Shown: positions 12,632-29,761 of the stretch, in pieces
Layout: every line of letters starts with the position of its first letter
Position numbering within the stretch: position 1 is the stretch's first letter
NCBI RefSeq assembly: GCF_017874375.1
Contig: NZ_JAGGLK010000002.1
Coordinates: forward strand, 124,001-188,000
Direction of reading: 5' to 3'
From: Methanohalophilus levihalophilus
Lineage (GTDB): Archaea > Halobacteriota > Methanosarcinia > Methanosarcinales > Methanosarcinaceae
DNA length: 64,000 nt
The notes under the pieces: model-generated
Told to the model about the DNA's origin: nothing
The model's database searches: none
What the model saw: the letters and a program-made list of their open reading frames with translations, nothing else
Made by a program: the position numbers and the translations under genes

Positions 12632-13768
12632 TTATTTCCTGTATGCAGGAAAATATCCAGAAGTCATCAAATCAGATACATCTATTCCCTCATATTTGGC
12701 TTTTAAATCACAAAGGAGATCATATAGCTCTTGTTTGTGTATTTTCTTGTATATGTAAAAAATTTCAGTTGTGCTTGAAAACGAAGATTTGAACTTGTAT
12801 AAACTGTCTCCAGCTTTGTAACCACCGCCCAGTTCGAATATCTTATAACCTTCTGCCTTTGCCCATATTATTGCTTCATACAAGATTAGATTTGTAGAAC
12901 ATAAGTTCCTGAAATCTGGATTGGAACCAGATAAATAATAGTGTACAAAATCATGATCATTCAAAAATACAGAGGCAGCAATTGGATTGTTGTTGTATTC
13001 AGCTATGAATAGTGTGGCATTTTCGCCTAAGAGATCAAATAAATTGTAAAAAAAAGATTTTGGGAAAAAGTATTTGGTATTCGCGTCAATCCTCTCCATA
13101 GTACGTGTGTATAACTGATATAGGGATTCAATGTCCTTCTTACTATTACTTTGGAAGACTTTGACACCGCTTCTCTAGCTTTTTGAAATACAATTCCGGT
13201 TAGCCTTCTTGAATTTTTTCACTATGTCTTCAATAGAAGAGTTTAGATCTACATATACTACACTATTAGAGATTTCAAGTTGTTCAGAACCATTTCTTAG
13301 CAAGGAATGGTTTTTAATGAAGGGATGCAAGCGGATGAATTCTGCAACAATATTTTGTTCAACACAATATTCATGGAATGCTTCAAAAAAGCTAGACATA
13401 AGTTTTTCATATGAAGCACTATTGCTCAATTTAAATTTCGATACTAATGGGCCACTAAAAAACCAAGGTGAACTTATGTCATAAACTTTTCCGTAGTCTG
13501 ATAACATTGGTTTATAAAAGTCTAATTCAAACAAAGGTCTCTTAAAAAAGGGATATAAGACGTACTTCTTTTCATTCCCATAAAATGCTAAAAGGGCTTC
13601 ACCTCCAAAGTTCTGGAAAACTTCAAGAGGTACATCTTCAAATAATTTCATATAAGTAGGAGTAAAGTATAAATCTTTACTTTCAAGACTCTCTAACAGA
13701 TTATTCCATCGTATAAGATCAGAACCGCTATTATGAAGTATTTCAAGTTTCCATTTTTCTTTGGCCAT
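12632..13768 (-). CDS. FemAB/GNAT-fold aminoacyl- or acyltransferase interrupted by in-frame TAG (pyrrolysine candidate)
   Basis: Two open stretches of 197 and 180 codons lie in one frame, separated only by a TAG at 13175-13177. Together they make a 378-aa protein with the duplicated GNAT fold of FemAB-like transferases. Residues 1-190 are the first half, with the FKKANRN motif just before the TAG; after it RSGVKVFQSN and ESLYQLYTRTMERI continue the family without loss, and FELGGGYKAGDSLYKFKSSF is the family's C-terminal signature. The TAG takes a spot that is usually a variable polar or charged residue. Options are pyrrolysine insertion, readthrough, or a one-base nonsense mutation. It may acylate an amino sugar. 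Starts one base after the preceding stop. Confidence 0.75.
13175..13177 (-). other. In-frame TAG codon (codon 198 of the FemAB-like gene)
   Basis: CTA on the plus strand, TAG in the coding frame. The reading is ...CISKS-TAG-RSGVKVF... with no frame change on either side. Confidence 0.9.
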
Positions 13769-15575: not shown

Positions 15576-16727
15576 TCACAAAATGAATTTTTTATTTATC
15601 AATTTATTATCAATCTCAATTTTATATAACAAATTCGCTATTTTTATTCCAGTGTTCTCTGAGGCATAAGGGTTTGGACAATTTTTAACGTTCTCTTTGA
15701 AATCTTTATCTGATAAAGCTTTCTTGATCGCAGAGACGATTTCATGTCTGTCATATTCAACATCAATAACATTTGTGGAACGTTCACGCCCACTTTGTCG
15801 AGTGCCGATGTTCACAGCGGGTATTTTGAAGAATGGAGACTCGACAATCCCACTGCTTGAATTGCCAATAATTGCGCTGGACACAGCCATTAGGCTCAAA
15901 TAGACATCTCGGGTTAGGTTTTTATATATTTTTATATTCGGATACTCTGAAAAATCTTTTATAACTTCAATCGCCAATTTGCCACCAGAATCTGCATTCG
16001 GATATATAACTATAGTCTGCAAGCCTAATTCAACTATTGATTCCATAGTTTCGCGCATGTGATCTGCTGTGTGCTCAATTTCATATGTAACTGGATGCTG
16101 GACAACAAGCAGAAGTGGATCATTCAAATTGATACTAAAGTAATTTTCAAGCTCTTGTGGTTCAATTGATTTAAAATCTTGGAGATCGTTACCAGGGTCT
16201 CCCACCATATGTATTCTCCATCCTTCTTCTCCCATCTTCGAAAGCCTTTCAGCACTTTTGGAAGTTCCAGGAAAATGTATATGGGCAAACTTAGTTATAG
16301 CATGCCTTATTGAGTCATCAATGCATCCACCCTCTGTAACATCACCACCTGAAATATGCGCAACCGGAATGTTCAGAAATGCAGATGCTATTACTCCAGA
16401 AGCTGCCTCCCAACGATCACCTTCAACAACTACAATATCTGGTTTTATTTGCTCAAGAGCTTGAGAAATCTTGATAATACCCAGACCTGCAGATGTGGCC
16501 ATGCTTGTCTTTGAATCACTACTCAATAAAATATCTAGTTCCGATGCAATTGAAAAACCATCTTTCTTTATATCATTTATTGTATAGCCGAATTCATGCG
16601 ATAAATGCATTCCAGTAGCAATTAAACACAATTCCAATTTTGGGTGGGAATCAATAGCTTTTAATGTAGAGCGCATTAAACCATAATCTGCACGGGTTCC
16701 TGTTATTACGGCAATTTTTCTAACCAT
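15576..16727 (-). CDS. legG: UDP-sugar 2-epimerase, hydrolysing (LegG/NeuC-like)
   Basis: Hydrolyses and epimerises the UDP-2,4-diacetamido sugar to free 2,4-diacetamido-hexose, or UDP-GlcNAc to ManNAc in the sialic acid version. 383 aa, family length. GTRADYGLM (about 10-18), VVEGDRWEA, AHISGGDVTEGGCIDDSIRH and the C-terminal GNSSSGIVE are characteristic. The ATG at 16727 is preferred to a TTG six codons upstream. It sits between legI and the methyltransferase on the same strand. LegB and LegC in the operon favour the legionaminic substrate. Confidence 0.88.
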   Translation of the reverse strand: MVRKIAVITGTRADYGLMRSTLKAIDSHPKLELCLIATGMHLSHEFGYTINDIKKDGFSIASELDILLSSDSKTSMATSAGLGIIKISQALEQIKPDIVVVEGDRWEAASGVIASAFLNIPVAHISGGDVTEGGCIDDSIRHAITKFAHIHFPGTSKSAERLSKMGEEGWRIHMVGDPGNDLQDFKSIEPQELENYFSINLNDPLLLVVQHPVTYEIEHTADHMRETMESIVELGLQTIVIYPNADSGGKLAIEVIKDFSEYPNIKIYKNLTRDVYLSLMAVSSAIIGNSSSGIVESPFFKIPAVNIGTRQSGRERSTNVIDVEYDRHEIVSAIKKALSDKDFKENVKNCPNPYASENTGIKIANLLYKIEIDNKLINKKFIL

Positions 16728-16807
16728 CAAATACCAACATCCCAAATTTAAGTTTGTGGTGGTTCTAGAGATATTAAATGTTTTTATTTGGATTTTGTCT
16801 ATTCGGG

Positions 16808-17854
16808 TTAATTTAACATAAGTTCATCTAAAGTTATTATTGTATCTTTTTTTATTTCCTGTTTAGATTTTGAACCAACAATTTGAGCCAAGTTTTTTGG
16901 AGAGATCCCTGTTCCAGGCCTTTTAAATGAAATCATATCTTCTGTGATTTCAGCTCCCATTGGGATGTCAATTTTAGCCACAATGCTTCTTCTGGCAACA
17001 CTACGTACTTCAAGCTCAGCATCTACAGGTGCTTTAATAGGAGAACCCAATGATTTTTCAACCATCCGTATACCACGAATCATTTCTTTTAGTTTTTCAG
17101 GTTCTAGGGATGCTTTATGATCGGGTCCCGGAAGATTTCGATCTATTGTAAAGTGCTTCTCTATAACACATGCTCCCATAGCTACAGCTGCAATAGAAGC
17201 ATAAATATCGGGGGTATGATCTGAATATCCAATCGGTAAACTTAGGCTATCAGACATTGTTTTCATGGCTCTCAAATTACAGTCCTCTATTCTTGCTGGA
17301 TAGTTTGAAGTACAATGCAAGAGAATTAAAGAGTTACATCCGATTTCTTTGATTGCCGAAACGGCTTCTTCAACTTCTTCAAGAGTTGACATCCCCGTAG
17401 ATAAGATAATTGGAAGATCTTTTTTTGCTATATATTTAAGAAATGGGTGATTTGTAATTTCACCGGAACTGATCTTGATTAAAGGTAGCCCAAGGGTTGT
17501 AAGCAAATCTGCACTCATTTCATCAAAAGGGGTAGACAAAAAGAGAATATCTTTTTTCCTAGCGTAATCTAATAAATATTCATGTTCTTCTTTTGATAGT
17601 TCTAATCTTTTGATCATATCAAGTTGAGATTCAGAAGCATCAGTAGTCATTTTTTGGTATTCAGCCTTTGGTGCATTAATACTAACAACTTCTTCTGATA
17701 CAAATGTCTGAAATTTCACGGCATCGGCACCCGCATCAACTGCTGCATCAATCAACTCTTTTGCTAATTCAAGATTACCATTATGGTTAACTCCTGCTTC
17801 TGCAATGATAAAGCAAGGAGCGTCTTTACCTATTAACCGATTCTTGATTTCCAT
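16808..17854 (-). CDS. legI: Nonulosonic acid synthase (LegI/NeuB family)
   Basis: Condenses the C6 sugar with phosphoenolpyruvate to a C9 nonulosonic acid. 348 aa with a TIM barrel and a C-terminal SAF (antifreeze-like) domain from about residue 285. Family motifs: IIAEAGVNHNGNLELAKEL (16-34), AVKFQTF, IKISSGEITN, LILLHCTSNYP, PIGYSDHT, VIEKHFTIDRNLPGPDH. Its start overlaps the end of legF by 29 bases, with AGGAG seven bases before the ATG. Whether the product is legionaminic or N-acetylneuraminic acid depends on the precursor enzymes. Confidence 0.92.
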   Translation of the reverse strand: MEIKNRLIGKDAPCFIIAEAGVNHNGNLELAKELIDAAVDAGADAVKFQTFVSEEVVSINAPKAEYQKMTTDASESQLDMIKRLELSKEEHEYLLDYARKKDILFLSTPFDEMSADLLTTLGLPLIKISSGEITNHPFLKYIAKKDLPIILSTGMSTLEEVEEAVSAIKEIGCNSLILLHCTSNYPARIEDCNLRAMKTMSDSLSLPIGYSDHTPDIYASIAAVAMGACVIEKHFTIDRNLPGPDHKASLEPEKLKEMIRGIRMVEKSLGSPIKAPVDAELEVRSVARRSIVAKIDIPMGAEITEDMISFKRPGTGISPKNLAQIVGSKSKQEIKKDTIITLDELMLN

Positions 17855-18542
17855 CCTTTGTCTCCTGAATCAACAATTCTGCAAGTTTAAAGTCGATTTC
17901 ATTGTCAATATCAACACTCTTGTCAACAGGCATAATGAAGGGAACAACATTGCCTGAATAAAAATCATTGTTTTTGTACAAATCGAGAACAGTACTTATA
18001 TATATTGCTCCATTCTGCCTATAAACTTTTGGTAGATCTTGTCTGCGTTTTTTTAAATATTCATCTCCTAATAGAGGCTTCAAGTGTGCATTGTCAAACT
18101 TGAAATCCCAATATGGAGAGTGCTCTACTTCACACATACTAAAAACTGAGCTGTAATCATTTGCAACAAATAGCTCAATTGCCCTGTCAATGTCATGTGT
18201 GTCTCTTAAGGGTGAAGTCGGTTGCAAAAGGACAACGACTGAAGGATTGTAATCATGTTTTAAAAATTCAATTGCATGAAAAATTGTGTCAATTGTCGGG
18301 GAATCATCTTTCGCAAGTTCTGCAGGCCTCTTAATAATATTTGCGCCACACCTTTCTGAAGTATTAGCAATAGGTTCACTATCTGTAGAAACAAATACTG
18401 CGTCAATGTATTTTGAATCTAGGGCGGCTTTTATAGAATAATAAATTAAAGGCATGCCTGCCAGTTGTCTGATATTCTTCCCTGGCAGACCTTTTGATCC
18501 ACCGCGGGCAGGGATAATGGCAATGATTTTCTCTTTATTCAC
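17826..18542 (-). CDS. legF: CMP-nonulosonic acid cytidylyltransferase (LegF/NeuA)
   Basis: Activates the nonulosonic acid with CTP. 238 aa; N-terminal nucleotide loop IIPARGGSKGLPGKNIR (9-25), VSTDSEPIA, LLQPTSPLR, and the metal-binding end VDKSVDIDNEIDF. Begins with GTG one or two bases from the stop of the upstream GT-B gene. The overlap with legI shows coupled translation. The product is the donor for a nonulosonate transferase, for which the adjacent GT-B-like gene is a candidate. Confidence 0.9.
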   Translation of the reverse strand: MNKEKIIAIIPARGGSKGLPGKNIRQLAGMPLIYYSIKAALDSKYIDAVFVSTDSEPIANTSERCGANIIKRPAELAKDDSPTIDTIFHAIEFLKHDYNPSVVVLLQPTSPLRDTHDIDRAIELFVANDYSSVFSMCEVEHSPYWDFKFDNAHLKPLLGDEYLKKRRQDLPKVYRQNGAIYISTVLDLYKNNDFYSGNVVPFIMPVDKSVDIDNEIDFKLAELLIQETKDGNQESVNR

Positions 18543-20083: not shown

Positions 20084-21094
20084 TCAACTCAGCTGATCTT
20101 TTATAAGCTGGGCAAACTCTCCTTTCTTATTAGAGGAAATTTCGTAACATTGGACATCGGCAAAGAAGTTATCAACAATAGACCGACGTTCAACTTCATA
20201 CTCATGTAAGTCCATTTTGCTTTTCATAATGTATGAGTAGGTAGCAACACTGTGATGAGAATTTGCTCTGAAGTGAGTAAGAGTTTGAGTGCTGTCAAAG
20301 AGGAGTTTTGCAGCTTCTTTACTATCCAATTCGCTAATCCCCAGTGGGCCGTCTCTAAGGAAATAGCATTGATTAGGATAAGAAGTACCAATGATATCTT
20401 GATTCAAATTTATAGATCCTCGATTATTGTAAAAAGCAGAGATTACAGGGGTCTTAAGAACTTTATCTCTAAAAATTTTACTAAACTTGCTTTTGCTTGA
20501 CATTTCTATATTACCAGTATCAGTTTCTGGAGAAATTCCTACCTCTCTGGGAAACGAATATGCAATATTTTCTCCTAAAATTACAGTGTCATCGGCATAA
20601 AGTTTTGAATTCGGGAAATGTGACAAAAGGTTAAGTATTGTAGAAGTCTTTCCCATATTGCTCAATCCCGAAATAAGAATATCTTGTCCGTTTAAGGAAA
20701 TACATGCTGCATGCACAGGAGTAACATTGTGTTTCAGTAAGTGAATTGAAATGGATGACCCAATAATATGGGACACATTACCAAATTTCCAAAAGAAAGG
20801 TGAGAAGGTCAGTTCAGTTTTGTCACATTCCAATCCTTTTATTGCTGCACTAAGATTAAATATAGAGGGGGCACCCCAATTGAGATACAGAGTTTCTCCA
20901 TCCCATCTAAATTTGTCTCCCACACGTTCAGCAGAAACAAAACCTTTTGGATCTATTTCTTTTATCTTGATAATAATATCAGGATCTTCAATGTCTTCTA
21001 CAAGAAAAACGTCTGGTAATTCAATGTTGTCAATCGCTAGAGATCGATCGGAGCAAATTGTAACCAAACCATGAATATTATAGTTAAATACCAT
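20084..21094 (-). CDS. HPr kinase-like P-loop protein
   Basis: 336 aa. Residues 1-120 have no clear family. The second half carries a P-loop ISGLSNMGKTST (about 145-156) and YADDTVIL, which corresponds to the HprK Walker B/catalytic region. Such HprK-like proteins occur in exopolysaccharide and peptide-modification clusters without any HPr partner, and are thought to phosphorylate another small molecule or peptide. Start ATG at 21094 has AGGTGA eight bases upstream; an overlapping GTG at 21106 is the alternative. It lies in the glycan operon between two glycosyltransferases, two genes from asnB. The substrate is unknown. Confidence 0.65.
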   Translation of the reverse strand: MVFNYNIHGLVTICSDRSLAIDNIELPDVFLVEDIEDPDIIIKIKEIDPKGFVSAERVGDKFRWDGETLYLNWGAPSIFNLSAAIKGLECDKTELTFSPFFWKFGNVSHIIGSSISIHLLKHNVTPVHAACISLNGQDILISGLSNMGKTSTILNLLSHFPNSKLYADDTVILGENIAYSFPREVGISPETDTGNIEMSSKSKFSKIFRDKVLKTPVISAFYNNRGSINLNQDIIGTSYPNQCYFLRDGPLGISELDSKEAAKLLFDSTQTLTHFRANSHHSVATYSYIMKSKMDLHEYEVERRSIVDNFFADVQCYEISSNKKGEFAQLIKDQLS

Positions 21095-21102
21095 TATTCC
21101 AC

Positions 21103-22251
21103 TCACCTTAGCAAGGACCGATAAAGTTCACTATATTGCTTTACAATAGAATTTGGATAAAAAGTCTCTAACTGATTAGTTGAGTATTGCAAAGTATTTT
21201 TATCATCATCAAATACGTCAATGATAGCATTTGCCAAGCCAACAGAATCCATTTTCGGAACTAGCATCTTGTCATTCCCCAAAACTTCAGGGATGCCCCC
21301 TACATTTGTAGCAACTATATTTTTTGAGAAATACATTGGATCAAATAAGGCAATACCAAAAGCTTCTTCAATTGCAGGCAAACAAAATATATCACAAGCT
21401 TTTGTCAATATAAGCTTTTCTTTATCTGTGATGTATCCCAAAAAGATTACATTCTTGTCTATTTTTTTGCTTTGACATAGCCTCTCTAAATTTTCTTTTT
21501 CTGGTCCAGTACCCGCAATTACTAAAAGCGCAGTTGGATGTTTATCTAGGACAGTAACCATGGCTTCAATGAGGTAATTTAAACCCTTTTGAAGATGAAG
21601 TCTTGATACCGATAGAATAATTTTTGAGCTGTGTTTTATGCCGTATTTAGCTTTTAAATCGATTTCATCGGAATTCGTGATTTCTATATTTGGCGGATTG
21701 AAAATATTGTGTATCACTTCTATTTTGTTTTCAGAGCTTCCTGAGCACAAAGCGTCATTTTTCATCGAGTTGCTTACTAGGACGTGTTTGTCACAGTATC
21801 TTAGTGTAAATTTTATTAGATAGCTTTTGATTTTACTTCTCCTTAAACCATAATCAATGCTTTCAACCAATTGTATGTCTTCTCCATGAGATGTTATAAC
21901 TACAGGAGCTTTGTGAATTGGCTTGGTTATGACTGCCAAAAATCCAGATGAAAATGCAAAATGAGCATGAATGATATCAGGTTTAATTTTTAAAACATTG
22001 CTGATAAACCTATAAAGCATTCTGCTTCCATCCTGGAAAACATTCGTATCCTTTTTCCTTAAAGAAATGTTTACAAGAGGATATTTACCGTAAGATTCGA
22101 TGAACCCATTTGCTTCATAAGGAGTAAACAAAGAAACTTCATTACCATTTTTGGATAATTCTTCAGCCAGCCATTTAACCTGATATTCTGCTCCACCGAC
22201 CTGTGGGAAAAATGTCGTAGTTAACATAGCAATTTTATTTTTACCATTCAT
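21103..22251 (-). CDS. Glycosyltransferase family 4
   Basis: About 382 aa, complete GT-B. N-domain start IAMLTTTFFPQVGGAEYQVKW without the usual gaps, then ITSHGEDIQ; C-domain ILSVSRLHLQKGLNYLIEAM, VIAGTGPEKENLERL, FLGYITDKEKL and EEAFGIALFDPMYF. The E-x7-E second glutamate is replaced by Asp (EAFGIALFD), so the pattern is E-x7-D. It transfers a sugar to the lipid-linked glycan. The N-domain precedes the C-domain, in contrast with the permuted gene at 24065. ATG at 22251 is preferred to a GTG overlapping the asnB stop. Confidence 0.85.
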   Translation of the reverse strand: MNGKNKIAMLTTTFFPQVGGAEYQVKWLAEELSKNGNEVSLFTPYEANGFIESYGKYPLVNISLRKKDTNVFQDGSRMLYRFISNVLKIKPDIIHAHFAFSSGFLAVITKPIHKAPVVITSHGEDIQLVESIDYGLRRSKIKSYLIKFTLRYCDKHVLVSNSMKNDALCSGSSENKIEVIHNIFNPPNIEITNSDEIDLKAKYGIKHSSKIILSVSRLHLQKGLNYLIEAMVTVLDKHPTALLVIAGTGPEKENLERLCQSKKIDKNVIFLGYITDKEKLILTKACDIFCLPAIEEAFGIALFDPMYFSKNIVATNVGGIPEVLGNDKMLVPKMDSVGLANAIIDVFDDDKNTLQYSTNQLETFYPNSIVKQYSELYRSLLR

Positions 22252-22264
22252 AACAATCAAACAT

Positions 22265-24064
22265 TTAATTCTCACTTAAAAATTCATTATACCACATAGT
22301 ATAGCATAGGCATTTCCATAATAAAACACTATAATCTCCCTTTCCTGCACGATGCCTTTCACGTATTTTCTGGATCTCACTATTATTCAAGTAAGGTGTG
22401 CTATTAATTTTTTCTTCAGATAGGAACTCATCGAGTGTGTCTTTCTCAAACCATTCCCTAATTGGAACATCGAAACCATGTTTTTTTCTTTCCATAACTT
22501 CTTTTGGCAAGAGATCATTAGCACAGAGCTTTAACAAATGTTTATTAAGCATTAAATTTGGAGGGATGGTAGACGTCAGTTCTAGCAAATTGTGGTCTAA
22601 AAAAGGAACACGTGCTTCAAGGGACGTAGCCATGGTCATCTTGTCTACTTTCATTAAAAGATCATCCGGCAACCAGTAATTGATGTCGAACTTCAACATT
22701 GATTTCAAATAGTTGTCGTATTCATAAAAAAGATCAAGTGGAAGATTGGTATCATCAATTTGCAGGATGTTAGGATTGAGATGACCATTATCCCTCAGTT
22801 TCAAACGGTAGTAATAACTGTTTTTTTGTCCATTTCGAGAACCTGCATACAATGCGTACTTCTTGATTTTACTTTCTTCGATTATGCTGCCTAGTCTAAA
22901 AGCAGAGTTTTTGAGTACGCGAGGTAAATATTTTGAGAAATTATGAGCTTTCAATTCAGATTGATATCTCCCATATCCTGCAAATGCCTCGTCACCGCCT
23001 TCACCACTTAATATCACTTTTACTTTTTTCCTTGCAGTTTCAGATATCAGGTATGTGGGTAATATTGCAGGGTCTGCTAGAGGTTCATCAAGATGGTATA
23101 TCAGCTTGGGCAAAACAGAAGTGTTTTCAATATCAACCCATTCTTCAGTATGATCAGTTCCAAAGTGTTCTGCAATCCTTCTCGAATAAGGAGTCTCATC
23201 ATAATCTGAACCATAAAAACCAACAGAGAAAGTCTTTATTGGTTCATTAGACAATTCACTTGCAAATGACGTTATTATAGAAGAGTCCAATCCGCCTGAA
23301 AGGAAGGAGCCAATTGGAACATCGGCAACAAGTCTTTTTCGTACAGATTCCTTAAGAATTTCAAGAATTTTGTCTTTAAAGTAGCCTTCACTACCTTCTG
23401 ATGTTGTAAAATCTAAATTCCAATAGCTATTTGCATGGAATCCGTTTGCTCCGATTTTAATGAAGTGGCCTGGTTTTAGTTTAAAGATACCTCTAAACAT
23501 TGTCAAGGGCGCTGGTACATATCGAAATGTAAAATACTCACTTAGGGCTTCTTCCTTTATTTCTGGCTTAAGACCATATTCGATAAGGGATTTGATCTCG
23601 GAGCCAAAAATGAGTTTATCTTCAAAAAGAGAATAATACAATGGTTTTATGCCCAAACGGTCACGTGCAAGAAACAGTTCTTTTTTTTCAGTATCCCATA
23701 ATGCGATTGCAAACATTCCGTTAAACTTGTTCAGGCAATCATTTCCATACTCCTCGTATGCATGAACAATTGTTTCGGTGTCTGAATTTGTACTAAAAAT
23801 GTGGCCTCTTTTTTCTAGGTCTTCTCTTAACTCTCTGAAATTATATATCTCCCCATTGAAAACGACAACTATGCTTCCATCTTCGTTAAAAACGGGCTGG
23901 TGCCCTCCTGAGAGATCTATTATGCTTAATCTGCGCATTCCAATAGAGATTTGCTCATCTACATAGTAGCCAGCGTCATCGGGTCCTCGATGCTCAATGA
24001 CATCGCACATTTTTCTCAAAAGATGTTGATCTGACAGTCCGTAGACGCCTGCTATGCCGCACAC
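22265..24064 (-). CDS. asnB: Glutamine-hydrolysing asparagine synthetase family amidotransferase
   Basis: 599 aa. After the GTG start the sequence reads MCGIAGVYGL, giving the N-terminal nucleophile Cys2 of class II glutaminases; the C-terminal synthetase has the PP-loop FLSGGLDSS (about 245-253) and GEGGDEAFAGY. It would use glutamine and ATP to amidate a carboxylate. Within a glycan operon the target may be a uronic acid or nonulosonate carboxyl rather than free aspartate; both are possible. The GTG overlaps the stop of the permuted glycosyltransferase (TGAGTG region). Confidence 0.88.
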   Translation of the reverse strand: MCGIAGVYGLSDQHLLRKMCDVIEHRGPDDAGYYVDEQISIGMRRLSIIDLSGGHQPVFNEDGSIVVVFNGEIYNFRELREDLEKRGHIFSTNSDTETIVHAYEEYGNDCLNKFNGMFAIALWDTEKKELFLARDRLGIKPLYYSLFEDKLIFGSEIKSLIEYGLKPEIKEEALSEYFTFRYVPAPLTMFRGIFKLKPGHFIKIGANGFHANSYWNLDFTTSEGSEGYFKDKILEILKESVRKRLVADVPIGSFLSGGLDSSIITSFASELSNEPIKTFSVGFYGSDYDETPYSRRIAEHFGTDHTEEWVDIENTSVLPKLIYHLDEPLADPAILPTYLISETARKKVKVILSGEGGDEAFAGYGRYQSELKAHNFSKYLPRVLKNSAFRLGSIIEESKIKKYALYAGSRNGQKNSYYYRLKLRDNGHLNPNILQIDDTNLPLDLFYEYDNYLKSMLKFDINYWLPDDLLMKVDKMTMATSLEARVPFLDHNLLELTSTIPPNLMLNKHLLKLCANDLLPKEVMERKKHGFDVPIREWFEKDTLDEFLSEEKINSTPYLNNSEIQKIRERHRAGKGDYSVLLWKCLCYTMWYNEFLSEN

Positions 24065-25195
24065 TCAAGCATCACCTTTGTACCCATTTAGAATGCGCTC
24101 AGCTTTTGACGCTGTTCTGCTGTCTGTGGCAGTCATAAGATCAACTCTCTTTGCAATGTACTTGTTAATGCGGTTTTTAATCCATGGTCCTTCTAAAGCA
24201 CCTTCTCCCCGGAAGCTGATAACTGACTGATTTCCTTTGTGCTTGGAAAGAAATGTGGAGATCAATCCGCCTTCCCAATTTCGTCCATCTACAACATCAA
24301 AAGCATCCAATGAAAGACCTTTAAGGCAACCTAAAGTACTATAGCAGAATCGTGACAAGGACTCTCCTTTTACGTATTTGACTCGATAATAATTCACACC
24401 TTCTAGCTGCCCATCCTTAGATCCTCCAATTCCGGTAGATATGACAGAAACATCACATTTTTGTGACAATCTTTTTGATAATTCATGAACTTGCCGACCT
24501 GCCCCAGACAACTGATAAGGTGGTGAATAAAGAGAGCAATAGCAAATACTATCGACATCTTTTCCACAAAGATCAGAATAAAGGGCATATACCTTATCCG
24601 CAACAACATCAAAGGAAAAATGACTCTCAGTATAGTCCCTGATTGTATTTCTATCAAGATACGCGTATTTTAAGATTCCATCTGCAATTTGGCTTGGGTT
24701 TTTAATTTCAGCAACAAACCCAACATCATCTGTTATTACCTCGCTTCCCGCTCCAACATGAGTTGTTACAATTGGCAACCCACAAGCCATTGCTTCAAGC
24801 ATAGAATTTGAAAAACCTTCCATCGAAATTGAAGGCAATACGAAAATGTCCATAGCATTGAGAAGTTTAGACAAGTTTTCATGTGGGACTTTTCCTAAAA
24901 TGCAAACTTTACCGTTTAAACCGGAAGCTTCTATTAGCTTTGCAATTTCGCTTTTTTGAGGTCCGTCCCCTGCTAGAAACAGCTTAAAAGGGAGATCAAT
25001 GTAGTCAAGTGATTTGATTAAATAACGTAATCCCTTTTCTTCAGAAAAACGTCCTACATAGATTATATTAATGCCATCAGCAAGATCAGTTTCAAAATTT
25101 CTTTCAAACCATTTCCGTTGAACGTCCTTATTGTATATTTTGAATTGAGTTGTATCTACTCCGTTTGGAACCACATTAACCTGATTTACATTCAT
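24065..25195 (-). CDS. Glycosyltransferase 4 family protein with swapped GT-B domains (circular permutation)
   Basis: 376 aa in an unusual order. Residues 1-190 are a GT4 C-terminal domain: it begins MNVNQVNVVPNGVDTTQF, the hinge normally found mid-protein, then YVGRFSEEKGLRYL, LFLAGDGPQ and EGFSNSMLEAMACGLP with E-x7-E. Residues about 195-376 are a GT4 N-terminal domain, beginning ICYCSLYSPPYQLSGAGRQV and ending SRTASKAERILNGYKGDA, which is where the hinge would normally follow. Joining the end to the start would restore an ordinary GT4. It starts by ATGA overlap with the upstream gene and ends against asnB, so it sits well in the operon. It may be active as a permuted enzyme, or be the product of two broken copies. 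Confidence 0.85.
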   Translation of the reverse strand: MNVNQVNVVPNGVDTTQFKIYNKDVQRKWFERNFETDLADGINIIYVGRFSEEKGLRYLIKSLDYIDLPFKLFLAGDGPQKSEIAKLIEASGLNGKVCILGKVPHENLSKLLNAMDIFVLPSISMEGFSNSMLEAMACGLPIVTTHVGAGSEVITDDVGFVAEIKNPSQIADGILKYAYLDRNTIRDYTESHFSFDVVADKVYALYSDLCGKDVDSICYCSLYSPPYQLSGAGRQVHELSKRLSQKCDVSVISTGIGGSKDGQLEGVNYYRVKYVKGESLSRFCYSTLGCLKGLSLDAFDVVDGRNWEGGLISTFLSKHKGNQSVISFRGEGALEGPWIKNRINKYIAKRVDLMTATDSRTASKAERILNGYKGDA

Positions 25196-26136
25196 GCTTG
25201 CTTGGCTCCTGTAAGAGATGAAGAAAACAATTCTATTGACTTGAAAGCGTATCCTAAACTAACAACAAATGTAAAAAGAATCAAAAAGAATATTTGAATT
25301 AATGGTCCGAGTCCCATACTACGAACAGCCTTTACTCTTCCATAGATCCCTGGATTTATCAGTCTCTTGAGGAAATCACTCTCAACATCCATGGAATAAC
25401 CCATATTTGCCATCATTTTTTTGGAGTATCCCTGCCAAAACGCTCTTCTCAACAAAAACTTAAGCCTAGTGCGACTTTTAAAAATCTTGTGGTGGACAAT
25501 TGCATGAGGATTATACATTACCCCTTTACCGAAAAGCTTTTTCATGCGCTCACAAATTTCAGTTTCTTCAGCTTGAAGGGCCCCTTTACCTTTAATTCCC
25601 ATATCTCCTTTAAACCCTTCAAATTCGTCAAGAACTTCTTTTTTGAAACTGATGTTTGAACCAAAGGTGTTCCGAACTTCGGTAACTTTTTCAGGAAATC
25701 CTTTGTGTGTTGCGCCAATCATCCAGTAAAACTCCTCTGGAAGAAAATCAGCTTTTCCATCTACCCATAGTGGAAATAATTTCCCGCCAGCAGCAATGGC
25801 ATCATATTTATCGTACATGCGCACAAGCTCACTGATCCAATTTTTTTCTGCAATTGCATCGTCATCAAAAAATGCGAGCACATCTCCAGTAGCTACCGCA
25901 ATTCCCCGATTCCTGCTTTCAGAAAGTCCAAGGTTCTTTTTATTGAGCAGGACCTTCATTTTCAATTGGTTGAGTTCTTTGTATTTTATTATTTTTTCAT
26001 AGAATTCTTTGTTTCCATCCACCACAGCTATGATTTCGACATTTCGGAAATCTTGATCAAAGAGACTCTCTATTGCTTCTATGAAATCATCATAGCGGCC
26101 AATATCATAAGCACACACTATAACAGATACAAGCAT
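25192..26136 (-). CDS. Glycosyltransferase family 2, membrane-anchored (AglG/AglE-like)
   Basis: First gene of the large minus-strand glycan operon, 314 aa. GT-A fold: VSVIVCAYD at the start, LNKKNLGLSESRNRGI (about 85-100), the metal-binding FFDDDAIAEKNW (about 112-123), and the acceptor region with ALQAEETEICERM. Near the C-terminus one hydrophobic segment, IQIFFLILFTFVVSLGYAF, should anchor it in the membrane. The layout resembles archaeal Agl transferases acting on dolichyl-phosphate-linked glycans. The ATG at 26136 follows GAGGTAA. Confidence 0.83.
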   Translation of the reverse strand: MLVSVIVCAYDIGRYDDFIEAIESLFDQDFRNVEIIAVVDGNKEFYEKIIKYKELNQLKMKVLLNKKNLGLSESRNRGIAVATGDVLAFFDDDAIAEKNWISELVRMYDKYDAIAAGGKLFPLWVDGKADFLPEEFYWMIGATHKGFPEKVTEVRNTFGSNISFKKEVLDEFEGFKGDMGIKGKGALQAEETEICERMKKLFGKGVMYNPHAIVHHKIFKSRTRLKFLLRRAFWQGYSKKMMANMGYSMDVESDFLKRLINPGIYGRVKAVRSMGLGPLIQIFFLILFTFVVSLGYAFKSIELFSSSLTGAKQA

Positions 26137-26184
26137 AAACAAATTACCTCGTCAATTATGCCAAGAAGTTTGCTTCAGTAATCT

Positions 26185-26338: not shown

Positions 26339-26376
26339 AATGCAAAACTCATAACAGATAACGGCAAGTGGAATAT

Positions 26377-28848
26377 ATGGATATTGAAAACAGGAAAAAG
26401 CAGCTTCTCAGTAGTTTACCCTATATCCTAGGAGTAACTATTTCGTTTATAATTGCGCTATCCATCAGACTACGTCCATCAGCAAGTGTTTTCCTTTCAA
26501 ATGGATTCGTACGGTTTGGGGGTAACGATCCATGGTATCATTTAAGAAATGTAGATTATATTTTGAACAATTTCCCTAATATACTATGGTTTGATGCTTA
26601 TACACAGTATCCTTATGGCACGTCTCAGGTTTTTGCACCCCTTTATGATGTCTTTTTGGCGCTAATTATATGGATACTTGGATTTGGAAATCCTAGCCAA
26701 GAACTTATCCACACAACAGCGGCTTATTATCCTGCATTTTTAGGCGCACTTGTTGTAATTCCAACATATTTTGCTGCGAAGTGGTTATTTGATCGTAGAG
26801 TAGGTTTACTTGCGTCTTTTTTGATTGCAGTTGCACCAGGACAGTTCCTTTCAAGGTCAATAATAGGCTTTAACGATCACCACATTGCTGAGACACTATT
26901 GACCACCATTATTGTTATGTTCTTGATAATGGCTTTAAGGACATTGAAGGAGCATCCAATTAGTTTTGCAAACTTGAAAAATCATGAATTCAGTGCATTA
27001 AAACCGGTTCTACCGTATATCATTCTTGCAGGTATCTCTTTGGGTGCATATTCTCTTGCATGGCTGGGAGCAGTCTTTTTCAGTTTCATAATTGGGATAT
27101 ACATAACGGTGCAACATGTTGTAGACCATATGCACAAACGGTCAACTGATTATTTGGCAATCACTGGTGTAGTTGTTTTTGCAATTGCATTGTTGATGGT
27201 ACTTTTGGTACCAGAACTTCGTGGAAGATCTTTATTGATGAGAGGTCTAGCTGGTGGAATTGTTGCATTCCCCATTCTTACTTTAATTTCCATGGAGCTA
27301 AATAAAAGGAATCTTAAGAATTACTACTATCCACTTTCAATTTTACTTTTATCTGTAATTGTGGTTGCAGCTGCAAAAATACTGTCTCCACCTACTTACT
27401 CACTGGTTACAAGCCTGGCAAGTTATTTCACGCTTACTGGGGGCGGATTAACAGTTGCAGAAGCCTCGCCTCTTCTCATACAAGGTGGTGTTTTCACTCT
27501 CCAACCAATTTGGTACAATTTTGCCCTTGCAGGAGTATTTTCTTTCATAGCGCTTGCAATTCTGGCTTATGTTGCTATCTACAAACACAACAATCGGGAA
27601 CAAACATTTTTGATTGTCTGGTCAGTAATGATCATCTGGGCGATGCTCCAGCAAAACCGCTTTGCATACTATTACTCCGTCAATGCTTCAATATTGGCTG
27701 CATATCTCGGAGTCAAAGTATTGGACTTTGCAGGATGGAAAGATGTGGATAATCCATTTAAGGAAGCTACTGATGGCATTGGAAGGTGGTTCAAACAAAT
27801 CAAACCACTTCATGTAGTTTCCTTGATAATAATGGTTCTGATTTTGGCATATCCTTCATATGATATAGCTGACCAACAGACTCGTGGAACGGGTGGTCCT
27901 AATGGATACTGGATAGAAGCTACGATGTGGCTAAACTCTAACACACCGGATCCGGGATTGGACTACTATGAGAGCTATGATGTCATTGATAGTGGTGAGT
28001 TATACCCATATCCTGATACAGCGTATGGTGTAATGTCATGGTGGGATTACGGTCATTGGATCGAAGTCATAGGGCACCGTATTCCAAATGCAAACCCATT
28101 CCAGCAAGGTGTTGGTGGGCGGAGAAATAGTATTGATGAAGAAAATCAACCCGGAGCATCCACATTCTTCACAGCTCAATCTGAAGGGGAAGCAACTGCA
28201 GTGCTTGAAGCAGTCCACCCTGATCCGGATAAAGCAGGTGCACGTTATGTAGTATCAGATGTTGAAATGGCAACTGGAAAATTCTATGCTATGGCTGCAT
28301 GGACACTTGACACGAATGATTATTATGTCGGAGTACAAACCGATCAGGGTACACAAACCGTTCCAGGAGAACGATATTTCAATTCTATGGAATCACGTTT
28401 GCATATTTTCGACGGAAATGGTCTTGAACAATATCGCCTGGTTCACGAAACACCGGCTGCCAGCACAGCAGAGATTGGATACAAACAAGTCTACAATGTG
28501 CTATTTTCCAATGGTAACAATATTGAAGAATCAAACACAGGGTATGTAAAAATCTTTGAATATGTTGAAGGTGCGACCATTGCAGGTGAAGCTCCAGAAG
28601 GAGAAATTGTGACTATTAGCACAACAATTAAAACGAGCACAGGTAGAACATTCCTTTATTCACAATCAATGGTTTCGGATGGTGCATTTGAATTCGTTGT
28701 TCCATATTCAACTCTGGGCTCATTGGCTGGCGAGACACAATTTGATACTATGCCTGTTAGCCAATATGCGGTGACTTACGGTGATGTAGTGGAAAAAGTA
28801 GATGTTGCTGAAAGGGATGTATTGGATGGGAATGTGATCGAATTATGA
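26377..28848 (+). CDS. aglB: Archaeal oligosaccharyltransferase
   Basis: STT3/AglB transfers the lipid-linked glycan to Asn of N-X-S/T sites outside the membrane. About 823 aa: roughly 13 membrane helices to residue about 500, then a soluble domain. Motifs: GGNDPWYHLRNVDY (first acidic motif), GFNDHHIAE (second), WWDYG at about 555-559 (sequon-binding signature) and the DK-type motif DVEMATGKF. The C-terminal 120 residues look like a beta domain. The ATG at 26377 is chosen over GTG at 26368. Being divergent from the glycan operon and upstream of two archaellin genes, it is the likely ligase for that glycan. Confidence 0.93.
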   Translation: MDIENRKKQLLSSLPYILGVTISFIIALSIRLRPSASVFLSNGFVRFGGNDPWYHLRNVDYILNNFPNILWFDAYTQYPYGTSQVFAPLYDVFLALIIWILGFGNPSQELIHTTAAYYPAFLGALVVIPTYFAAKWLFDRRVGLLASFLIAVAPGQFLSRSIIGFNDHHIAETLLTTIIVMFLIMALRTLKEHPISFANLKNHEFSALKPVLPYIILAGISLGAYSLAWLGAVFFSFIIGIYITVQHVVDHMHKRSTDYLAITGVVVFAIALLMVLLVPELRGRSLLMRGLAGGIVAFPILTLISMELNKRNLKNYYYPLSILLLSVIVVAAAKILSPPTYSLVTSLASYFTLTGGGLTVAEASPLLIQGGVFTLQPIWYNFALAGVFSFIALAILAYVAIYKHNNREQTFLIVWSVMIIWAMLQQNRFAYYYSVNASILAAYLGVKVLDFAGWKDVDNPFKEATDGIGRWFKQIKPLHVVSLIIMVLILAYPSYDIADQQTRGTGGPNGYWIEATMWLNSNTPDPGLDYYESYDVIDSGELYPYPDTAYGVMSWWDYGHWIEVIGHRIPNANPFQQGVGGRRNSIDEENQPGASTFFTAQSEGEATAVLEAVHPDPDKAGARYVVSDVEMATGKFYAMAAWTLDTNDYYVGVQTDQGTQTVPGERYFNSMESRLHIFDGNGLEQYRLVHETPAASTAEIGYKQVYNVLFSNGNNIEESNTGYVKIFEYVEGATIAGEAPEGEIVTISTTIKTSTGRTFLYSQSMVSDGAFEFVVPYSTLGSLAGETQFDTMPVSQYAVTYGDVVEKVDVAERDVLDGNVIEL

Positions 28849-28897
28849 TTCATAGCTACTTTTTGATTGTTTTTTCATTATTTGAGGATTGTTTACA

Positions 28898-29761
28898 ATG
28901 GAAATAAAAAAGGCGGTTATTCCTGCTGCAGGTCTTGGTACTCGCTTTCTTCCGGTGACGAAGTCCATGCCGAAAGAAATGCTTCCAATAATTGACAAAC
29001 CAGTTATCCATTATGTTGTTGAGGAGGCTATTGCTGCAGGTATAGATGACATCATTTTTGTTACAGGTAGAAGTAAACGTTCCATTGAAGACTATTTTGA
29101 TGAATCCCCAGAATTGGAGATGCACCTTCGCAATAGTCACAAAGATGATCTCTTGAAAATCGTAGAAGATATTTCTTCAATGGTTGATATCCATTACATA
29201 AGGCAGAAAGAACCAAAAGGACTTGGTGATGCCATAATGCGTTCCAGAAAGCATGTCAATGGCGACCCATTTGCGGTGCTTTTAGGCGATGATATAATTG
29301 TTAACAAAACTCCCTGTATTCGGCAACTGATAGAAGTATCCAAAAAATATCAGTGTTCTACGATTGCAGTGGAGCAAGTTCCACGTAAGAAAGTTAGTAG
29401 TTATGGAATCATAAAGGGGCAACCACTTGAAGAATCTCTTTACATTCTTGAAGACATCGTGGAAAAACCTTCAATTGACAAAGCGCCATCAGATATTGGA
29501 GCAATAGGAAGGTATGTGTTTACCCCGGAAATATTTGATTGCATAAATGAAGCTGGAATCGGGGTTGGGGGCGAAATTCAGCTTACAGATGGTATTCGTA
29601 TGCTTAATAAAATGCAGAAAGTCTATGCTTATAAATTTGCAGGCCGGCGCTATGATACCGGGGATAAATTAGGTTATGTGAAAGCAATCATTGATTTTGC
29701 AATCCAGAACGAAAGTTTTGGCTCTCAAGTAAAGGATTACTTGTGCAAAAAAGTCGATTAA
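28898..29761 (+). CDS. galU: UTP-glucose-1-phosphate uridylyltransferase
   Basis: Makes UDP-glucose from UTP and glucose-1-phosphate. 287 aa. Nucleotide-binding [17 protein letters not shown] (about 11-27), [18 protein letters not shown] (metal), and VEKPS plus [10 protein letters not shown] of the sugar-binding part. ATG at 28898 has GAGGAT eight bases upstream. It lies 49 bases behind aglB, probably the same transcript, and feeds the epimerase at 6573. Confidence 0.9.

What the first reader, a model, noticed from the sequence alone, without database searches (positions are those of the whole stretch)
24065..25195. Circularly permuted GT4 glycosyltransferase
The C-terminal (nucleotide-sugar) domain comes first, starting at the hinge VVPNGVDTTQF, and the N-terminal (acceptor) domain comes second, ending at AERILNGYKGDA. 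Joined end to start, they make a seamless ordinary GT4. Natural permutations of GT-B enzymes are rare. A tandem duplication followed by loss of the outer halves would make this arrangement. Tight operon overlaps on both sides suggest it is used.
Basis: partly seen in the sequence, partly recalled or inferred. Interest (0 to 1): 0.82.

Follow-up and report, generated by a model that had tools for sequence, protein, structure and literature searches.

The report
Archaeal glycosyltransferase with swapped halves
This gene encodes a sugar-transferring enzyme whose two halves are joined in the opposite order from its ordinary relatives, and the same swapped order is preserved in at least eight archaeal genomes, so it is a real, maintained protein design and not an assembly error.

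Summary
Confirmed. The minus-strand ORF at 24065-25195 (376 aa) carries a GT4 donor domain first (residues 1-210) and a GT4 acceptor domain second (214-371).

Against 54 ordinary archaeal GT4s, the natural-order profile aligns as two swapped blocks meeting at residue 212. Moving the front half to the back gives one colinear alignment of 353 columns (E 6e-67). AlphaFold2 predicts a confident two-Rossmann protein (pLDDT 89, pTM 0.87). Each half matches solved GT4 structures, but none listed matches the whole chain in order. The EX7E glutamates and donor-site R/K are intact.

Seven further genomes (ANME-1, Archaeoglobaceae and kin) encode the same order at about 46-65% identity, with the same breakpoints and purifying selection. 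That excludes a collapsed assembly. The gene sits with an AglG-like GT2, an asparagine-synthase-like amidotransferase, AglB and GalU. The likely job is a retaining transferase in archaeal N-glycan assembly; activity is inferred.

Two points stay open: whether both halves share one parent, and whether tandem duplication was the route. A reverse-order GT-B fusion is known elsewhere (Alg13-Alg14 in Entamoeba and Dictyostelium), so this is a new variant, apparently the first described in GT4 as far as the papers searchable here show.

The parts
24065..25195 (-). cpGT4 gene: 376-aa GT4 glycosyltransferase with donor (C-type) domain first and acceptor (N-type) domain second
24566..25195 (-). Residues 1-210: donor-binding Rossmann domain normally found C-terminally, ending in the long crossover helix (H195-210); holds GR(49)..EK(54)G and E126-x7-E134
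   Evidence: PF00534 at 40-177; secondary structure; motif alignment
24557..24565 (-). Residues 211-213: start of the short new linker (211-215) joining the old C-terminus to the old N-terminus
   Evidence: end of H195-210 and start of E216-220; block boundary at residue 212
24068..24556 (-). Residues 214-376: acceptor Rossmann domain normally found N-terminally (Gly-rich loop LSGAG, RGEG loop); ends in the opened hinge
   Evidence: PF13439 at 230-362; separate model and Foldseek hits to N-domains of MshA, BshA, SPS
25192..26142 (-). Upstream AglG-like GT2 glycosyltransferase, ATGA overlap with cpGT4; conserved neighbour
   Evidence: NF041394 365 bits, below its 440 cut-off; 55-63% identical to the GT2 next to or near other cpGT4 genes
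22265..24064 (-). Downstream asparagine-synthase-like amidotransferase (N-terminal MCGIAG), start codon abutting the cpGT4 stop; conserved neighbour
   Evidence: PF00733 and PF13537, TIGR01536 above cut-off; 55-69% identical to those near other cpGT4 genes
26368..28848 (+). AglB/STT3 oligosaccharyltransferase, divergently transcribed beside the operon
   Evidence: TIGR04154 847.6 bits, cut-off 450; PF02516, AglB_core, AglB_L1
28889..29761 (+). GalU-type UTP-glucose-1-phosphate uridylyltransferase
   Evidence: TIGR01099 above cut-off

Best explanation
A small family of GT4 (GT-B fold) glycosyltransferases in which the inter-domain hinge has been opened to make new termini and the old C-terminus has been joined to the old N-terminus by a short linker (SHOWN by sequence, predicted by model). 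In ordinary GT-B enzymes the C-terminal helix crosses back onto the N-terminal domain, so the old ends already lie close together; the swap keeps the two-domain cleft and the active site and leaves the crossover helix as the only covalent link between domains (INFERRED from the fold and the 376-residue model). The enzyme would bind a nucleotide sugar in the first domain and a lipid-linked glycan at the second, and transfer the sugar with retention, in the assembly of an archaeal N-glycan whose uronic acid is probably amidated by the neighbouring asparagine-synthase-like enzyme before AglB transfers it to protein (INFERRED from neighbours). The rearrangement happened once, in the ancestor of this family, and the gene has since moved patchily among related archaea (INFERRED).
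For: Domain order; swapped-block versus colinear profile alignment; colinear match to BshA structures after rejoining; confident model with two Rossmann domains and a 5-residue linker; first half matches GT4 C-domains (TMq up to 0.48), second half alone matches GT4 N-domains (TMq about 0.6-0.7); same order and same breakpoints in L001, L003, L004, L005, L006, L014 and the frameshifted L002; dN 0.14 against dS 1.31 for L001/L005; EX7E, R49, K54 invariant; AglG-like, AsnB, AglB and GalU neighbours.
Against: No activity, transcript or structure data. The N-domain loop that usually carries His (HG) carries Arg (RGEG) in all members, though 6 of the 54 ordinary GT4s compared also have Arg and 3 Gln there. 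The second half is only distantly like any ordinary N-domain (about 30 bits at best), so a changed role of that domain is possible.
Confidence: 0.8

Rival explanations
1. Reverse-order fusion of halves from two different GT4 genes (for example two neighbouring genes in an operon), so the protein is a chimera that mimics a permutation and not a true circular permutation of one parent.
For: The ordinary GT4s closest to the first half are not those closest to the second; the two half-trees place the family beside different ordinary GT4s. Tandem in-frame GT4 pairs that would give this by readthrough exist: L044 holds two ordinary GT4 genes with the C-domain of the first directly before the N-domain of the second.
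Against: AU tests do not reject one shared ordinary group for both halves (p 0.17-0.46). The ordinary group best matching the first half (L057, L058, L062, L063) shares the unusual Arg in the second half's RG loop. The set of ordinary GT4s was picked by two searches, which biases the rank comparison.
Confidence: 0.3
2. Assembly artefact: two tandem ordinary GT4 genes collapsed so that the outer halves vanished.
For: Collapse of tandem repeats can create such a junction in principle.
Against: Eight genomes in independent records show the same order, breakpoints and neighbours, at 42-77% identity in the second half. No extended repeat is present around the gene in the window.
Confidence: 0.01
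3. The swapped protein has lost glycosyltransferase activity and serves as a partner or scaffold of the AglG-like GT2.
For: The usual N-domain His is replaced by Arg; conserved pairing with GT2.
Against: EX7E, R49 and K54 are invariant; all members conserve DGRNWEGG and RGEG in the acceptor domain, as expected of a substrate site; the His is also missing in some ordinary GT4s.
Confidence: 0.1
4. The swap arose by splitting of a GT4 into two genes followed by refusion in reverse order, as proposed for Alg13-Alg14.
For: Alg14/Alg13 and EpsE/EpsF show that GT-B enzymes work as split pairs and refuse, in Amoebozoa with order inverted (PMC8993221; PMC4973528).
Against: No separate half-GT4 gene pair related to this family was met in the genomes searched; absence is weak evidence.
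Confidence: 0.25

Closest known systems
Ordinary GT4 glycosyltransferases (BshA 5D00/2JJM/3MBO, PimB' 3OKA, sucrose-phosphate synthase 6KIH)
   Same: Both Rossmann domains, EX7E and donor-site R/K; colinear over the full length once the halves are rejoined
   Different: Domain order reversed; termini at the inter-domain hinge; Arg where most have His in the acceptor-domain loop
Archaeal ordinary-order GT4 group of L057, L058, L062, L063
   Same: Highest first-half scores; shares Arg in the RG loop
   Different: N before C; about 35% identical in the first half and 15-20% in the second
Reverse-order Alg13-Alg14 fusions of Entamoeba histolytica and Dictyostelium (PMC8993221)
   Same: GT-B enzyme with donor domain before acceptor domain in one chain, also in N-glycosylation
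   Different: MurG/Alg14-13 lineage and not GT4; eukaryotic; explained as split then refusion
AglG-type GT2 and AglB N-glycosylation cluster of archaea (NF041394, TIGR04154)
   Same: Neighbour genes of this cluster type
   Different: The Agl glycosyltransferases named in PMC8993221 (AglJ, AglG, AglK, AglC) are GT2/GT-A; this is a GT-B enzyme
GH70 glucansucrases (permuted GH13 barrel; PMC11046441)
   Same: Natural circular permutation of a carbohydrate-active enzyme that keeps its active site
   Different: Unrelated fold; glycoside-hydrolase-type enzyme

Membership tests
GT4 (GT-B fold) | Donor domain Glycos_transf_1 (PF00534) above cut-off | tested here: met
   120.5 bits, cut-off 26.4; all 7 members match
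GT4 (GT-B fold) | Acceptor domain Glyco_transf_4 (PF13439) | tested here: met
   28.8 bits, cut-off 28.5 for the window; all 7 members match, best 2e-11
GT4 (GT-B fold) | EX7E motif and donor-site R/K | tested here: met
   E126/E134 and R49/K54 invariant in the family
GT4 (GT-B fold) | Acceptor domain N-terminal to donor domain | tested here: not met
   Order reversed in 8 genomes; 26 of 26 ordinary GT4s scored are N before C. So it is filed as a permuted variant, not a standard GT4
GT4 (GT-B fold) | Two facing Rossmann domains forming a GT-B cleft | tested here: inconclusive
   Confident model with both domains and pTM 0.87, each half matching GT4 structures; relative placement was not superposed on a GT-B structure
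GT4 (GT-B fold) | Retaining glycosyl transfer | not testable with these tools
   Needs an enzyme assay
Circularly permuted protein | Rejoining the halves restores one colinear alignment to unpermuted homologues | tested here: met
   One block of 353 columns, E 5.8e-67, against two swapped blocks in natural order
Circularly permuted protein | Old termini joined, new termini at one other site | tested here: met
   Junction at residues 211-215; all members begin just before VVPNGV and end just after the ATDxxTA helix
Circularly permuted protein | Both halves from one parent gene | tested here: inconclusive
   Half-trees differ in nearest ordinary GT4; AU tests reject nothing
Alg13-Alg14 type reverse-order fusion | Belongs to the MurG/Alg14-13 lineage | tested here: not met
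   All family hits are GT4-type (PF00534, PF13692, PF13439, PF13579); no Glyco_tran_28 match
Archaeal AglB N-glycosylation gene cluster | Gene lies with AglB and an Agl-type GT2 | tested here: met
   TIGR04154 above cut-off; NF041394 strong but below its cut-off

The most novel reading that the evidence does not exclude
The first described natural circularly permuted GT4 family: one ancient hinge-opening event gave an active retaining glycosyltransferase of archaeal N-glycan assembly whose two domains are linked only through the crossover helix, showing that GT-B catalysis does not need the usual inter-domain linker.
Probability: 0.55. Interest if true: 0.68.

Novelty: new variant of a known kind. 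Interest (0 to 1): 0.6.

Why it matters
GT4 is among the largest glycosyltransferase families, and the hinge between its domains is thought to govern opening and closing of the active site. A conserved natural variant with that hinge cut and the far ends joined makes the hinge's role directly testable against ordinary relatives. It also warns that order-dependent annotation and sequential structure search will see only half of such a protein: one search found only the donor domain. Finally, it adds a GT-B enzyme to archaeal N-glycan loci, where the enzymes named in PMC8993221 are mostly GT2.

Tried and rejected
Collapsed tandem or chimeric assembly: rejected because independent genomes carry the same order. 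A plasmid- or phage-borne gene: no plasmid or phage record covers 80% of the query, and five viral-contig hits are short. A plasmid hit that ran across the domain junction (Haloarcula rara, query 40-299) proved to be an ordinary GT4 followed by unrelated DNA. Common parent or two parents from half-trees: tried with 61 sequences, unresolved. Finding an unpermuted orthologue: 393 genomes searched with the rejoined profile gave only distant ordinary GT4s (best about 170 bits over the full length, against about 360-377 bits for the donor half alone of most permuted members). The hit spanning the junction in L044 turned out to be two ordinary tandem GT4 genes separated by a stop, not a permuted gene. 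Literature searches for circular permutation with GT-B or GT4 found only GH70 and unrelated cases; a recalled lead that KpsC/WbbB might be permuted found no support (the term is absent from those papers). The second model (acceptor half alone, pLDDT 78) is less confident than the same half in the full chain.

Full report
WHAT IS THERE. The minus-strand ORF at 24065-25195 encodes 376 residues. Pfam finds the GT4 donor domain PF00534 at 40-177 and the GT4 acceptor domain PF13439 at 230-362, the reverse of the normal order. All seven intact members of the family match both domains.

IS THE ORDER REALLY SWAPPED. Three tests agree. (a) Profile against profile: with the natural order, residues 3-212 align to the second half of 54 ordinary archaeal GT4s and 212-367 to their first half; moving the first 213 residues to the end gives one block of 353 columns at E 5.8e-67. 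(b) Against solved structures, the single protein reaches only the C-domain of BshA (4.3e-15), but the rejoined family profile runs through BshA from residue 16 to 376 (2.6e-24); part of the E-value gain comes from using a profile, the colinearity does not. (c) Scored with the natural-order profile, all 26 ordinary GT4s with both halves detectable have N before C.

STRUCTURE. AlphaFold2 with the seven natural sequences gives pLDDT 89.1 and pTM 0.87: two Rossmann domains, a long helix at 195-210, a five-residue linker and strand 216-220 that begins the acceptor domain. Foldseek, which aligns in chain order, matches only the donor half to GT4/GT5 structures; the query TM-score stays below 0.5 throughout the 50 rows shown. 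The acceptor half folded alone (pLDDT 77.8) matches the N-domains of MshA, BshA, GlgM and sucrose-phosphate synthase (TMq about 0.6-0.7). In ordinary GT-B proteins the C-terminal helix crosses back onto the N-domain (general knowledge of the fold), which explains why the old ends can be joined by so short a linker.

ACTIVE SITE. E126 and E134 of the EX7E motif, R49 and K54 are invariant. In the acceptor domain the usual HG loop reads RGEG in all members; 36 of the 54 ordinary GT4s have His there, six have Arg and three Gln. DGRNWEGG is invariant in the family.

RELATIVES. A scan of 84,980 species for close relatives found six loci, all in the same order: L001, L002, L003, L004, L005, L006, from ANME-1/Methanophagales, Geoglobus, other Archaeoglobi and an unplaced euryarchaeon. 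A genome search added L014 in the window's own order. L002 carries a frameshift, which may be a sequencing error. The gene was seen in 7 of 393 genomes of the phylum, 3 of 59 in the class of Archaeoglobaceae, 3 of 58 in the class of ANME-1, 1 of 6 in the family of L014 and none of 7 congeners of the window. So it is rare and patchy, which suggests transfer with its locus. Permuted GT4s in other phyla that are too different for the peptide patterns cannot be excluded.

SELECTION. The one unsaturated pair (L001/L005) has dN 0.14 and dS 1.31; all others have saturated synonymous sites and far fewer non-synonymous changes, in both halves.

NEIGHBOURS. Upstream with a 4-nt overlap lies an AglG-like GT2 (NF041394, 365 bits, below its cut-off of 440); downstream, abutting, an asparagine-synthase-like amidotransferase; beyond the GT2, on the other strand, AglB (TIGR04154 above cut-off), then GalU. 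GT2 and AsnB homologues recur next to or near the cpGT4 in the other loci at 55-69% identity. In Archaeoglobaceae the gene follows a GalU-type gene, and an epimerase-like gene follows it (reading of the ORFs). A role in adding one sugar to a lipid-linked, probably uronic-acid-containing N-glycan is the simplest reading; donor, acceptor and linkage are unknown.

ORIGIN. All members share the breakpoints, so the event predates the family. The half-trees each make the family one clade but disagree on its neighbours; the acceptor tree joins long branches and carries a warning. AU tests reject neither a common ordinary parent group nor alternatives. A hint for one parent: the ordinary group best matching the donor half shares the Arg in the acceptor half. 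A hint for two parents: rank orders by the two halves do not agree, though the sampling is biased. L044 shows that tandem ordinary GT4 genes in one frame, the raw material for either route, do occur.

KNOWN BACKGROUND. A reverse-order GT-B fusion is published for Alg13-Alg14 in Entamoeba and Dictyostelium (PMC8993221), in another lineage. Searches of open-access papers for permuted GT4 or GT-B glycosyltransferases found none; subscription journals and preprints were not searched.

VERDICT. Real, conserved, and a new variant of a known kind. The permutation is shown at sequence level (about 0.98 by my judgement); function as an N-glycan GT4 is inferred (about 0.75); the route of origin is open.

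Noticed in passing
window 15576-18542 (-): NeuC-, NeuB- and NeuA-like genes (PF02350, PF03102, PF02348): a nonulosonic (sialic-type) acid pathway in the same glycan island.
   Followed up: partly
window 12632-13768 (-): FemAB/GNAT-like sequence in two adjacent ORFs; only the second (12632-13099) matches FemAB models, suggesting a split or frameshifted gene.
   Followed up: partly
window 20084-21106 (-): Protein with a weak HPr-kinase C-terminal match (below cut-off) inside a glycan locus; role unclear.
   Followed up: no
L044:970-3378: Two ordinary GT4 genes head to tail in one frame, parted by a stop; the natural-order cpGT4 profile runs across the gap, a living example of the tandem arrangement that could yield a permuted GT4.
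   Followed up: yes
L014:2602-3424: Nucleotidyltransferase-like and HEPN-like ORFs (by eye) inserted between the cpGT4 and the AsnB-like gene.
   Followed up: no
L005:4065-5156: An ordinary-order GT4 (L040) lies directly downstream of the cpGT4, overlapping its end, and has Arg in the same RG loop position.
   Followed up: partly
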